The position numbers and the translations under genes were made by a program. The notes below the pieces were generated by a model. It had not been told where the DNA came from. It saw nothing but the letters and a program-made list of their open reading frames with translations, and made no database searches. Below, in pieces: positions 349-5,330 of a DNA stretch of 64,000 nucleotides. Where the stretch lies: NCBI GenBank assembly GCA_013792135.1, contig VMSP01000069.1, forward strand, positions 1 to 64,000. The letters are read 5' to 3'. Origin of the DNA: Desulfocapsa sp. Its GTDB lineage: Bacteria; Desulfobacterota; Desulfobulbia; Desulfobulbales; Desulfocapsaceae. The stretch's first letter is position 1. Each line of letters opens with the position of its first letter.

Positions 349-642
349 TCAGCAGCCGCACACTGATGGTTTTTTCCCGGTAAACTTGGCAAGCCAACTG
401 TTGAGAATATAGCGTGCACAACCGCAACCATCATCGGGATTGACAAAAATGGCCTCGACAGGACAGTTCCTGGCACAAGCCCCGCATTCCATACAGGCAT
501 CATAGTCGACAATTGTCGCTTTTTTTTCAATACATTTGAAAACCCGATGCGGACAGACTATCTCACACATCCCACAACCGATACAGACCGCCTGATCGAG
601 TTTGAGAATTGCTGCACCATCTATGTACCTGAACTCTTTCAT
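349..642 (-). CDS. hgcB: HgcB, ferredoxin of mercury methylation
   Basis: HgcB is the 2x[4Fe-4S] ferredoxin thought to reduce the corrinoid of HgcA and to help move Hg(II)/methylmercury through its cysteines. The 97-residue protein carries two clusters. The first is around CIGCGMCEIVCP (residues about 21-32). The second is in the HgcB signature CMECGACARNCP (about 50-61). Further Cys follow at DGCGC, and the C-terminus is VCGC. The gene starts 10 nt after the hgcA stop and is clearly cotranscribed with it. From memory, HgcB proteins usually end in a vicinal Cys pair. Here the last codons are Cys-Gly-Cys followed by TGA, so a single stop codon sits where a second Cys might be expected. I take the TGA as the stop but note the coincidence because hgcA also has an odd TGA. 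Confidence 0.9.
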   Translation of the reverse strand: MKEFRYIDGAAILKLDQAVCIGCGMCEIVCPHRVFKCIEKKATIVDYDACMECGACARNCPVEAIFVNPDDGCGCARYILNSWLAKFTGKKPSVCGC

Positions 643-652
643 TGTTTATTTC

Positions 653-1843
653 TTAAAGAAAAAATGGCCCGGCAAGCCAGCAGAGCAGGCCAAGCAGGGC
701 GGAAACGATCTGTATTGCTAAGCCTTTGCGCATTTCCATTTCAACCCCGGAAAGAGAGGTATAGGGGGTAGAACCGGTGAAGTTCATGGCCAGAAAGGAG
801 CTGACACTCATTGCCCATAAGGCCATACCGATCACGGCAATCCAGCCGACAAAGGGCAAAAACCGCAGAACAGTAAAAACTGCGACCAGAATCCCTAATA
901 GCACACCTTTGAGCCAGAACTGCCTGCCCGGTATCCAAGGCAGCAGAAGTGGAACCAGAACCGCCCCGGCAAGGACGCTCATAATCGTCACGAGGGTGAT
1001 GCTTCCTCCTCTATGCAAGGCACGGTCCAGCGAATAGATATCCGGTCCGAAACCGGAGAACAGGACCAGGCAGACAAGAATGAGAGTAAGCGGTTTCAGG
1101 AGTAAAAAAATTTCCAAAGGGATCAAGACGGCGCGTTCCTTCAGGGTAAAGGTGACGCTGCGCATGGACTCGTCTGCTGTGTTACCGCCAGTCAGAAATG
1201 CCCTGATATCAGTTGCCCTGATCGGGCCGAAGGTACTTTTGAAACCACATGCAGTTTTCAGTTTCAGGGCAGAGACTCCAGGGGCGCTACATTGCGGAAG
1301 AATCAGTTCGCGGTGCTTGACCACTTCCACAAGTCTTGCCCGCTGGACCTGGTAAACAATTTCCTCAGTGGAAAATGTTCCTTTACCTGCGGCACACCAG
1401 ACGTTGATGCCTCTGGTGTCAACTACCAGCATCCAGACATTCATGCCCCCTAGTTCATTACGCAGGGTATCGAAAGTCAGTTTATAATTGGCGGTAACTA
1501 AAACGGGCGCATCACCGGTTGGCTTACCGACACAATACAGTCCTGGCGTTATGGTGTACTTATCACGCTGAATACCGAGTCGCACTCCGATCGTCCCAAT
1601 ATGATCAGCACGACTCAGAATGGTATCAATCTGCGGCACCCAACCTACCGGCGAGTCGACAAACCCGCAAACAAAAGGGTAGATGGCGTATCCCGCCAGT
1701 TCATGCTCCCCGGACCGGGGTTCCGTTTTGGGACCTCAGCAGACTCCGGCTTCTACTTCCGGCGGCGGGGCTAAAGATACAGAACAGGATGAAGGATTTT
1801 CCGATTTTGATAAACTGGCAAGAGGTTGCAAGGATTGTGTCAT
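653..1843 (-). CDS. hgcA: HgcA, corrinoid mercury methyltransferase with in-frame UGA (probable selenoprotein)
   Basis: HgcA transfers a methyl group from its corrinoid to Hg(II). The cap-helix motif NVWCAAGKG, with the lower-axial-ligand Cys (about residue 150 in this model), is present. So is the rest of the corrinoid domain (GLYCVGKP, VTANYKLTFDTLR). A C-terminal domain follows with about five hydrophobic segments and the conserved MNFTGSTPYTSLSG. Without readthrough the longest frame starts at a GTG at 1639, inside conserved sequence. Codons upstream of that GTG encode YPFVCGFVDSPVG, which clearly belongs to HgcA. No start codon separates this block from an in-frame TGA at 1736-1738. The same frame continues above the TGA as a Pro/Ser-rich tail ending EAGVC, back to an ATG at 1843. 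Read through, the protein is 396 residues with Cys35-Sec36-Gly-Pro. There is no good Shine-Dalgarno before 1843; a GTG at 1924 is an alternative. Identity as HgcA is near certain; selenocysteine is inference. Confidence 0.85.
1708..1720 (-). promoter_or_regulatory. SECIS-like hairpin after the hgcA UGA
   Basis: The mRNA reads CCCCG-GUC-CGGGG, a 5-bp G+C stem. If the last G-C pair is open it is a 4-bp stem with loop GGUCC. It starts 16 nt after the UGA at 1736-1738, so the loop begins about 20 nt after it. Bacterial SECIS elements recognised by SelB lie immediately 3' of the UGA and have a short stem with G among the first loop bases; the E. coli fdhF loop also contains GGUC. The lower stem is poor, and no selA, selB or selC is visible in this window. 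Confidence 0.5.
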
Positions 1844-1976: not shown

Positions 1977-2876
1977 TCATCCCGCAATCTTTGTCGCCAG
2001 AAACTCAACAAAAAGTTCACTATCATTTTGCACCTGACAAACCCGGTAATCGTGCAGACCGATGCTCCGGGCCAGCTCCTTATATTCAATGGCCAGCTCC
2101 AGATCAGTCTCGGAATTATCAATGGTAAACGAGAGGGGATAGACAATCACCTTCTCTCCCGACAGTCCCTTCAGCGTTGTCTCCAGTGATGGCTCCAGCC
2201 AGCGCATGGGTCCGACCTTGGACTGATAGGCCAGATGAACTCTTTTAAAGTCCAGTCCGGCGTCAGGCAATAGCGTTTTCAACAGGGCAACATGCGCCTC
2301 AATCTGCCCTTCATAGGGATCGTCGACGGCAATCTTCTGTGGCAGGCCATGGGCTGAAAAGATCAAATGAGCACTGCTGTCCAGATACTGTTCGCGAATA
2401 CGCTCCACTATTGAGGCATTAAACAGAGGATCATCATAATAAGGGCCGATTTCCCTGATCTCCGGCCGTTGCCCATAACTCTCAATCGCCCGATAGACAT
2501 CTTCAAGACTCGACTGAGTTGTGGTCGAGGAATAGTGTGGATAGAGTGGAACAAGCACCAATTGATCAAACTCTCTTTCTGCAAAGAGATCGGCAGCCAG
2601 AGGATGGGTATAACGCATGACCGGAAAAACCGCTTCCCCGGTTCGTTGTCGAAGCTTTTTCACCAACCTCTCAGTATGCTGATAAATCCTGCTACCGTTA
2701 ATCAACTCATACTTTCGCCATGTTTTTTTATAACGAAGAGTTGAAATAAGCGGAGCGAGGAGATAACGCACTGGCGAGCGAATAATATACTTATCACTGA
2801 ACATATTGAACAGAAAAGACCTGAGCTCCTGTTCTGACCGCGCTCCGCCCATGTTGAGCAACAAGACCCCTTTCAT
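1977..2876 (-). CDS. hemH: Ferrochelatase
   Basis: This protein inserts Fe(II) into a porphyrin as the last chelation step of haem synthesis. The 299-residue protein is a single ferrochelatase domain. It opens with the family start LLLNMGGARSEQELRSFL, has the catalytic-His segment LIFSAHGLPQK (about residues 172-182), the YQSKVGPMRWLEPS block, and the acidic metal-site segment FTIDNSETDLEL. AGGAAATGA gives a good ribosome site just before the ATG. Many sulfate reducers make haem b through the sirohaem (Ahb) route, so a classical HemH is a point of interest. Whether it accepts protoporphyrin or coproporphyrin cannot be told from sequence alone. It lies 133 nt upstream of hgcA on the same strand, so readthrough transcription into hgcAB is possible. 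Confidence 0.92.
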   Translation of the reverse strand: MKGVLLLNMGGARSEQELRSFLFNMFSDKYIIRSPVRYLLAPLISTLRYKKTWRKYELINGSRIYQHTERLVKKLRQRTGEAVFPVMRYTHPLAADLFAEREFDQLVLVPLYPHYSSTTTQSSLEDVYRAIESYGQRPEIREIGPYYDDPLFNASIVERIREQYLDSSAHLIFSAHGLPQKIAVDDPYEGQIEAHVALLKTLLPDAGLDFKRVHLAYQSKVGPMRWLEPSLETTLKGLSGEKVIVYPLSFTIDNSETDLELAIEYKELARSIGLHDYRVCQVQNDSELFVEFLATKIAG

Positions 2877-2906
2877 TTCCTTTCCCCTACCTTCTGCTCA
2901 GCAATT

Positions 2907-4400
2907 TCAGTTTATTATCGGGGCAGTACTGACACAGTTCCGTCCCTGATTCTTGGCTGTGTAAAGTGCCGCATCGGCACGACTGATGGTTTGTTCAAAC
3001 AATTCCACCCCATCATATTGGCTGATACCAATACTTACGGTCAGTGCAATGAATTTGCCATTTTCCTCGAAGCGTCTTTGTTCAATTGTCTCGCGCAGCT
3101 TTTCGGCAAGGCATTTTGCCTGATCAAGATCACAGTCATTCAGGACCACCAGAAATTCCTCGCCTCCCCAGCGCACGGCAATGTCCGACTGACGCAGCGA
3201 ATTCTGTAAGAGTTGAGCGATACCGCTCAAAGTGCGGTCTCCAACAAGATGCCCATGGATATCGTTGATGGCTTTAAAATGGTCTATATCTATAAATAAT
3301 ATGGACAACGGTCTGGGATTACGAAGATATTCAGCAAGGAGTTTTTTAATGAAGATGATGAAAACCTGCCGATTGAGCAGGCTAGTCAGCTTGTCGGTGG
3401 TGGCCATCTCCTCAATGCGGTTCTGGTAACGGTCAAGGGTCAGATGGGCCAACACTAATACCAGCAGCGTCATTGCCAGACTAACGGCGAGATTAATATA
3501 AAGTGTCCGGCGTATGCCAGCCAATGCCATGTCCTCATTCTGTTCAACAAACAAGAACCACTTGAGCTCAGGCAGATAGTTGACGTTTAAAATATAATTG
3601 TCACCATTCACTTCATACTGATAAAAACCACTCTTTTCGTGTAGAATACGTTCTACAAGGACCCCCAGCCCCGGCGCGGTATGCATGTCGATTTCCTCTT
3701 CGGTAGTACTGCCGAACAGAACCTTGTGTCCCTGGTCATTGACGAAGTAGATGACGCGCTGATAGCGCTGCTGGTAGTCTGCAATCAGGTGGCGTACGGC
3801 ATCCACGGTGAGGCCTATACCGGTTGCGCCGATATAGTTGCCTCCAAAATCGAAGACACGATAGTTGATAAAGATAGTCAACGTATCCTTGTTGGCCAGA
3901 TCGGGATCCACATTAATCTCGTAGGATTCCTTCATATTGCGCACCCGGTAGTACCAGGCATCACGTGGCTCCGTTGGTACCACATGTTTCATGATGCCTT
4001 TACCGGTATAATAAATCGCACTTTTTTCCGAGACGAAAAAGCTGCTGAATGCACCGTAGCGTTCTTTCACCTCGGCCAGGTAACGCGCCAATTCACCCAC
4101 ATCTTTTTCACCCTGCATAACCCATTCACGCAGAAAGGTGTCGTGGGCCATGGTGGAAGAAATCAGCACAGGGCGGACCAGATCCTTTTGGATCTCCGAA
4201 TAGATGTTACTCGAGGTAAGCGGAAGATTCTGACCAATAATTGCCGTGCGGATGGCCTGCTTGGAAACAAAGTAGCCGAACAGTGTGGTGGCAAAAAACC
4301 CGGCAATCAGCAACAGGCTCAAGAGGAAAAGAAGCCGGCGACGGTCAAAAATACGATAGGTTTTGGTCATGGCAGTGCTACGCAGGTAATTGACCCGCAT
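2907..4400 (-). CDS. Membrane diguanylate cyclase with Cache-type sensor
   Basis: The protein makes c-di-GMP from two GTP in response to an extracytoplasmic signal. The 497 residues are an N-terminal membrane helix (about 23-47), a periplasmic region of about 250 residues with dCache-like features (YYTGKG, DAWYYRVRN, FDFGGNYIGATGIGL), a second helix (about 302-324), and a GGDEF domain (about 335-490). The active loop is RWGGEEFLV and the inhibitory I-site RQSD lies five residues before it, so the enzyme should be active and product-inhibited. The ATG at 4370 (MTKTYRIFDRR) is an equally possible start. It stands alone, with no obvious operon partner. A PilZ target is encoded about 10 kb away (the MtnA-PilZ fusion), but no link is shown. 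Confidence 0.9.
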   Translation of the reverse strand: MRVNYLRSTAMTKTYRIFDRRRLLFLLSLLLIAGFFATTLFGYFVSKQAIRTAIIGQNLPLTSSNIYSEIQKDLVRPVLISSTMAHDTFLREWVMQGEKDVGELARYLAEVKERYGAFSSFFVSEKSAIYYTGKGIMKHVVPTEPRDAWYYRVRNMKESYEINVDPDLANKDTLTIFINYRVFDFGGNYIGATGIGLTVDAVRHLIADYQQRYQRVIYFVNDQGHKVLFGSTTEEEIDMHTAPGLGVLVERILHEKSGFYQYEVNGDNYILNVNYLPELKWFLFVEQNEDMALAGIRRTLYINLAVSLAMTLLVLVLAHLTLDRYQNRIEEMATTDKLTSLLNRQVFIIFIKKLLAEYLRNPRPLSILFIDIDHFKAINDIHGHLVGDRTLSGIAQLLQNSLRQSDIAVRWGGEEFLVVLNDCDLDQAKCLAEKLRETIEQRRFEENGKFIALTVSIGISQYDGVELFEQTISRADAALYTAKNQGRNCVSTAPIIN

Positions 4401-4514
4401 CCTATGCGCGTCATCAGGATTCGGGTCATTGTTAACCCAAGAATATACAAAGCCTCACTCCTGTTGTATTGGCCAGAGAGTAGACAGAAAGAAACACTGT
4501 CCGCTGCCTTTACC

Positions 4515-5330
4515 TCAACCCAGGGCCACATCGAGTACCATCATCACCGTGAATCCAGACATGGTGGCCATGGTGACCATGTCAATATGGGCCTCATTGA
4601 GTTGTGAGGTCGGAATTAATTCCTCCACCACCACAAAGATCATGGCCCCGGCGGCAAAACAGAGGGCATAGGGAAGAATGGTCTGCATCTGGAGGACAAA
4701 AAAAGCCCCCAAAACACCGGCCACAGGCTCGACCATCCCCGAAGCCTGGCCCATGAGAAAACTCTTCATCCGCCCCATCCCCTCTCTTCGCAGGGGCATG
4801 GAGACCGCTGCTCCTTCCGGAAAATTCTGAATTCCAATACCTATGGCCAAAGCAATCGCCGCACCAATAGTGGCTGAGGGAAGACCGGCAGCCACTGCTC
4901 CGAAGGCAACCCCCACAGCCAGCCCCTCCGGAATATTGTGGAGGGTGATAGCCAGGACCAGCAAGGTACTTCGTTGCCACGAAGTCTTGACTCCCTCGCT
5001 CTTATTCATCGCCAGCCCTGGATGAAGATGGGGAAGAAAGGTATCAGTCAGGCGCATGAAAATTCCGCCACCCATGAATCCGATCACGGCAGTCAGCCAG
5101 GGAACAAGTCCCATCTGCCCCGCCATCTCTATGCCTGGGGCCAGTAGCGACCAGAAGCTGGCCGCAATCATAACCCCGGCCGCAAATCCTAGCATTGCAT
5201 CCATGAACCGCTGATTAACGGTCCTGGTGAAAAAAACCAGTGCTGCACCGGCGGCGGTCACCCCCCAGGTAAAAAGGGTGGCCAGAAGCGCCTGCATAAC
5301 CGGATCAAATTGCTGTATAAAACTGATCAC
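4515..5330 (-). CDS. ZIP-family metal transporter
   Basis: This is an inner-membrane divalent-metal importer of the ZIP (GufA/ZupT-like) family, likely for Zn2+ or related ions. The 271 residues form about eight hydrophobic segments. The two metal-binding helices carry the hallmark [14 protein letters not shown] (about 133-146) and [11 protein letters not shown] His-containing loop ([11 protein letters not shown]) lies between helices 3 and 4, as expected for ZIP proteins. The ATG start and length match the family. The protein ends without an obvious terminator of its own. Substrate cannot be assigned from sequence. Confidence 0.88.

What the first reader, a model, noticed from the sequence alone, without database searches (positions are those of the whole stretch)
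1700..1843. hgcA carries an in-frame UGA that looks like selenocysteine next to a Cys
Conserved HgcA sequence (YPFVCGFVDSPVG) continues upstream of the GTG at 1639 and meets a single TGA at 1736-1738, with no start codon between them. The same frame above the TGA is a typical Pro/Ser-rich tail reaching an ATG at 1843. The TGA follows a Cys codon and precedes Gly-Pro, so the product would read Cys-Sec-Gly-Pro. From memory, unverified, many HgcA proteins have a Cys pair before Gly-Pro at this place. A CCCCG-GUC-CGGGG hairpin begins 16 nt downstream, consistent with a bacterial SECIS. A selenol in HgcA would be mechanistically striking, because selenium binds mercury very strongly. I know of no described selenocysteine HgcA.
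Basis: partly seen in the sequence, partly recalled or inferred. Interest (0 to 1): 0.95.

Follow-up and report, generated by a model that had tools for sequence, protein, structure and literature searches.

The report
Selenocysteine in mercury-methylating protein HgcA
The mercury-methylation gene hgcA in this bacterium contains a 'stop' codon that is almost certainly read as the rare amino acid selenocysteine; this kind of HgcA was already predicted in 2023, but the motif is very widespread and probably also lies just outside the textbook version of the protein.

Summary

A TGA at 1736-1738 (minus strand) sits in an otherwise open hgcA frame, after Cys and before Gly-Pro. In 114 distinct HgcA genes read here (mostly same order), 71 have TGA at this exact codon and 22 have Cys there; the other 21 lack the pair, are cut short, or are distant outgroup rows. 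A hairpin meeting the published bacterial SECIS rules follows the TGA; it covaries and is absent from the Cys genes. The genome encodes SelA, SelB, SelD and tRNA-Sec.

Sec-HgcA (motif CU) is catalogued in PMC13188914, citing Haft & Gwadz 2023, so this is a new member of a known kind. Two points I did not find in the papers I could read: the site is common across the phylum (at least 24 of 83 hgcA-bearing genomes), and 20 of 20 evaluable Pseudodesulfovibrio relatives carry it 22 codons upstream of where the 338-residue reference HgcA of strain ND132 starts, so that reference is probably an N-terminally truncated gene model. The role of the Cys-Sec pair is inferred only: a flexible soft-metal or redox arm.

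The parts
653..1843 (-). hgcA, 396-residue selenoprotein form (ATG 1843 to TAA 653-655, TGA at codon 36 read as Sec)
   Evidence: NF040863 422.6 bits, cut-off 275; whole frame conserved in relatives
1736..1738 (-). Sec codon UGA, residue 36
   Evidence: TGA in 71 and Cys in 22 distinct HgcA at this column
1739..1741 (-). Cys35 codon TGC, partner of Sec36
   Evidence: residue before U is Cys in 71 of 71
1708..1720 (-). bacterial SECIS hairpin CCCCG-GUC-CGGGG
   Evidence: meets published bSECIS rules; MFE -8.2, 2% of synonymous recodings as low; covariation across Sec genes
349..642 (-). hgcB, ferredoxin partner, ends C-G-C; not a selenoprotein here
   Evidence: NF040864 102 bits, cut-off 99; its stop codon varies among relatives

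Best explanation
The gene encodes a selenoprotein form of HgcA. Shown by sequence: the UGA at 1736-1738 is a conserved Sec codon, interchangeable with Cys in homologues, followed by a bacterial SECIS, in a genome with SelA, SelB, SelD and tRNA-Sec. Inferred: SelB brings Sec-tRNA to the ribosome at this UGA and a 396-residue HgcA is made. The Cys35-Sec36 pair sits in a flexible N-terminal tail ahead of the corrinoid domain. The likeliest role of the pair (about 0.55) is a soft-metal ligand arm, the counterpart of the flexible C-terminal cysteines of HgcB, that passes Hg(II) or CH3Hg+ to or from the corrinoid; a redox role is second. The confidence below is for the Sec reading.
For: TGA at the same codon in 18 of 18 relatives from genome contigs and in 71 distinct genes, Cys in 22; always preceded by Cys. 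Coding constraint above the TGA. SECIS criteria met, GG at loop nt 22-23 in 67/71 Sec and 0/22 Cys genes, stems 5.8 vs 3.3 bp, compensatory changes. selA, selB, selD and two tRNA-Sec genes in the own genome. Tail predicted disordered. Independently catalogued as a selenoprotein.
Against: No protein-level or selenium data. The role of the pair is inferred: a subset of HgcA lacks it, and the ND132 protein without the tail makes CH3Hg in E. coli lysate, so the pair is not indispensable. Shuffle controls do not correct for relatedness.
Confidence: 0.95

Rival explanations
1. The TGA is a true stop: HgcA starts downstream (for example at GTG 1639) and the upstream frame is untranslated or a pseudogene remnant.
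For: Standard ORF calling gives 328 aa from GTG 1639, and NF040863 begins only at residue 69.
Against: The frame is constrained on both sides of the TGA, the TGA is invariant in 71 genes and is replaced only by Cys within the motif, and a covarying SECIS follows.
Confidence: 0.03
2. Assembly or sequencing error in the metagenome bin (TGC/TGT misread as TGA).
For: The window comes from a fragmented genome of 186 contigs.
Against: The same TGA is found in dozens of independent genomes, among them the complete chromosome of Desulfopila sp. IMCC35008 (L016).
Confidence: 0.01
3. Both forms are made: with little selenium translation stops at the UGA and a short HgcA starts at a downstream GTG; with selenium the full form is made.
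For: In-frame GTG codons recur downstream in relatives; the short ND132 form is active in E. coli lysate.
Against: These GTGs also encode conserved valines, and their ribosome-binding sites were not examined.
Confidence: 0.1
4. The Cys-Sec pair is a redox couple (selenenylsulfide) that reduces or protects the corrinoid or HgcB, not a mercury ligand.
For: Adjacent Cys-Sec pairs occur in redox selenoproteins (general knowledge); Sec and Cys replace each other here.
Against: HgcB already supplies electrons in the accepted scheme (PMC7305189); HgcB has a similar flexible cysteine tail proposed to move mercury.
Confidence: 0.3

Closest known systems
Sec-containing HgcA (NF040863, motif CU, WP_250697417.1; Haft & Gwadz 2023, catalogued in PMC13188914)
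   Same: Same family, same Cys-Sec motif.
   Different: No difference found in kind; this is another genome. The 2023 paper could not be read, so finer comparison is open.
HgcA of Pseudodesulfovibrio mercurii ND132 (model chain 9a0b_A)
   Same: Same fold and cap-helix Cys; 54% identity over 323 columns.
   Different: The published protein (338 aa) begins 22 codons after the position of the Sec codon in its relatives and has no Cys-Sec tail.
Cys-type HgcA of the same order (CCGPKPGPP motif, for example L071, L074)
   Same: Same protein with Cys in place of Sec.
   Different: No SECIS-like hairpin with G-rich loop.
Corrinoid iron-sulfur protein CFeSP large subunit (2h9a, 2ycl, 4djd)
   Same: Corrinoid-binding domain.
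   Different: [quoted passage not shown] the match covers only the corrinoid domain.

Membership tests
Selenoprotein (Sec at UGA) | In-frame UGA conserved and replaced by Cys in homologues | tested here: met
   71 UGA, 22 Cys at one column
Selenoprotein (Sec at UGA) | Bacterial SECIS: loop 3-9 nt with G in first two positions, stem 4-16 bp, spacing 16-37 nt, MFE at most -7.5 | tested here: met
   3 nt, G first, 5 bp, 20 nt, -8.2 kcal/mol (rules)
Selenoprotein (Sec at UGA) | SelA, SelB, SelD and tRNA-Sec in the genome | tested here: met
Selenoprotein (Sec at UGA) | Selenium in the protein | not testable with these tools
   needs 75Se labelling or mass spectrometry
HgcA | NF040863 above its curated cut-off | tested here: met
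   422.6 bits, cut-off 275
HgcA | Cap-helix cysteine (N-V-W-C-A) | tested here: met
   NVWCAAGK, Cys150, invariant in 28 aligned sequences
HgcA | Corrinoid domain followed by a five-helix membrane domain, with hgcB next door | tested here: met
   five long C-terminal helices in the model, match to 9a0b_A, hgcB at 349-642
HgcA | Methylates mercury | not testable with these tools
   needs culture or expression

The most novel reading that the evidence does not exclude
Most HgcA of Desulfobulbales and of Pseudodesulfovibrio, the model methylator ND132 included, are selenoproteins whose true N-terminus carries a Cys-Sec mercury-handling arm. The reference HgcA used in the published biochemistry would then be a truncated gene model that starts after the UGA and lacks this arm.
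Probability: 0.55. Interest if true: 0.8.

Novelty: new member of a known kind. Interest (0 to 1): 0.5.

Why it matters
HgcA makes the neurotoxin methylmercury, and selenium binds mercury very strongly. If a large share of HgcA proteins carry a Sec-Cys arm that annotation cuts off, selenium supply could modulate methylmercury production, and the purified HgcA studied so far may lack a natural part. Gene surveys that trust automatic start calls truncate hgcA, and the standard family model NF040863 begins downstream of the motif (its match starts at residue 69).

Tried and rejected
Sec machinery as a discriminator between Sec-type and other genomes failed: SelB is found in 57 of 65 Sec genomes and in 34 of 38 Cys-type or motif-less genomes. 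Rfam search of the SECIS region gave only chance matches. HgcB as a second selenoprotein in this operon was rejected because its stop codon varies among relatives. One RNA register for all SECIS hairpins was rejected; the stem slides by one to three nt between clades. Finding ND132 itself among the held genomes failed: the best fingerprint fit was 16 of 19 residues. Haft & Gwadz 2023 and the 2015 HgcA mutagenesis paper are not held.

Full report
OBSERVATION. On the minus strand, hgcA runs from ATG 1843 to the TAA at 653-655 with a single in-frame stop, TGA at 1736-1738. The read-through product is 396 aa, matches NF040863 (HgcA) at 422.6 bits against a cut-off of 275, and is followed by hgcB at 349-642. 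The hairpin CCCCG-GUC-CGGGG lies at 1720..1708.

IS THE FRAME ABOVE THE TGA CODING? Yes. In six close relatives of equal length, substitutions in codons 1-35 fall 108/49/140 on codon positions 1/2/3, against 315/306/318 in the 105 nt upstream of the ATG. A search of 84,980 species genomes returned 18 relatives, and all 18 have TGA at the same codon in the context C-U-G-P, down to 51% identity. One of them is the complete chromosome of Desulfopila sp. IMCC35008 (L016).

CYS HOMOLOGUES. 194 genomes of the same order were searched, the hgcA regions fetched and read with TGA as U. Among 114 distinct HgcA, 71 have U at this column, 22 have Cys (CCGPKPGPP-type), and 21 fall in neither group: these lack the pair, are cut short (for example L096, L098), or are the three distant outgroup rows L137-L139. 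The site lies at a fixed distance, 111 or 107 codons before the cap-helix motif. The residue before U is Cys in 71 of 71. On a maximum-likelihood tree the labels are clustered: 5 changes for the three classes against 36 on shuffled labels.

SECIS. A published consensus requires a 3-9 nt loop, a 4-16 bp stem, a G in the first two loop positions, 16-37 nt spacing and MFE at most -7.5 (PMC13188914). Here these are 3 nt, 5 bp, G first, 20 nt and -8.2 kcal/mol. Only 2% of synonymous recodings of this gene fold as well. Across genes, GG at nt 22-23 after the UGA is found in 67 of 71 Sec genes and 0 of 22 Cys genes. The mean stem is 5.8 bp in Sec genes and 3.3 bp in Cys genes. In the 107-type group 89% of cells pair, with 23 compensatory cells against 8.8 in shuffles (0 of 500 reach it); the 111-type group shows 24 against 10.6 in its best-covarying register (0 of 500); the Cys genes pair at 55% of cells at best. 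Shuffles do not correct for relatedness, so these numbers support but do not alone prove the structure.

MACHINERY. The window's own genome holds SelA (619.9 bits), SelB (392.6 bits), SelD (376.9 bits, itself with an in-frame TGA) and two tRNA-Sec genes with anticodon TCA. SelB is common in the whole order, so its presence does not separate Sec-type from Cys-type species.

BREADTH. In a phylum-wide sample, 83 of 297 genomes have an hgcA match at E 1e-60 or better. I verified U at the same site in at least 24 of the 83 (and the order-level set). Variants include a swapped Sec-Cys order (L172 and L181, T-U-C) and a U without a Cys before it (L176). In the genus of Pseudodesulfovibrio sp. MAG6 (L014), 20 of 20 evaluable HgcA carry the TGA; L210 starts at a contig end and cannot be judged.

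ND132. The reference HgcA of P. mercurii ND132 has its cap-helix cysteine at residue 93. The deposited model chain has 329 residues and the first nine were left out, so the protein is 338 aa; PMC11588087 expects 37 kDa. In the 20 relatives the Sec codon lies 114 codons before that cysteine, which is 22 codons before the ND132 start. In 12 of the 21 relatives the codon at the ND132 start position is GTG. The simplest inference is that the ND132 gene model was truncated at the UGA. ND132 itself was not among the genomes held, so this is not shown.

MECHANISM. Shown by sequence: a conserved Sec/Cys column, a SECIS and the machinery. Inferred: Sec insertion, and a full-length product. The tail that holds Cys35-Sec36 is predicted disordered, with pLDDT under 50 over residues 1-39, and precedes the corrinoid domain. 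HgcB has a comparable flexible tail with cysteines that have been proposed to move Hg(II) or CH3Hg+ (PMC7305189). I think a soft-metal arm is the likeliest role of the Cys-Sec pair (about 0.55), a redox role second (about 0.3). The pair cannot be indispensable: some HgcA lack it, and E. coli lysate with the tail-less ND132 protein makes CH3Hg.

LITERATURE. PMC13188914 lists HgcA (NF040863, motif CU) and HgcB (motif GVGU) among selenoproteins, citing Haft & Gwadz 2023 and, for HgcA, a 2008 ocean survey. I could not read the 2023 paper, so I cannot say whether it already noted the breadth, the ND132 point or the swapped order.

VERDICT. A well-supported new member of a known predicted selenoprotein family. 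Sec reading about 0.95; role of the pair open.

Noticed in passing
L192-L212 (genus of Pseudodesulfovibrio sp. MAG6): All 20 evaluable HgcA carry C-TGA-GP 22 codons upstream of the position where the published 338-aa ND132 HgcA starts, so the reference gene model is probably truncated.
   Followed up: partly
L172, L181, L176, L218: Variants of the motif: swapped Sec-Cys order (T-U-C) in L172 and L181, U without a preceding Cys in L176 and L218.
   Followed up: no
window 349-642 and relatives: HgcB of this clade has NPDDGCGCA and a C-terminal C-G-C where others have PGVGCA and C-C; the two features seem to go together.
   Followed up: partly
own genome, L019, L022 and L145: Two tRNA-Sec genes (anticodon TCA), and a selD that itself carries an in-frame TGA.
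   Followed up: no
L075 (G017): A Cys-type HgcA with a TGA at a different place, where its close relative L074 has Gly; probably an error or a broken gene.
   Followed up: no
window 1977-5330, minus strand: Upstream neighbours on the same strand are ferrochelatase, a GGDEF protein and a ZIP-family metal transporter.
   Followed up: no
NF040863 model: The HgcA family model starts at residue 69 of this protein, so it cannot see the Sec site.
   Followed up: no
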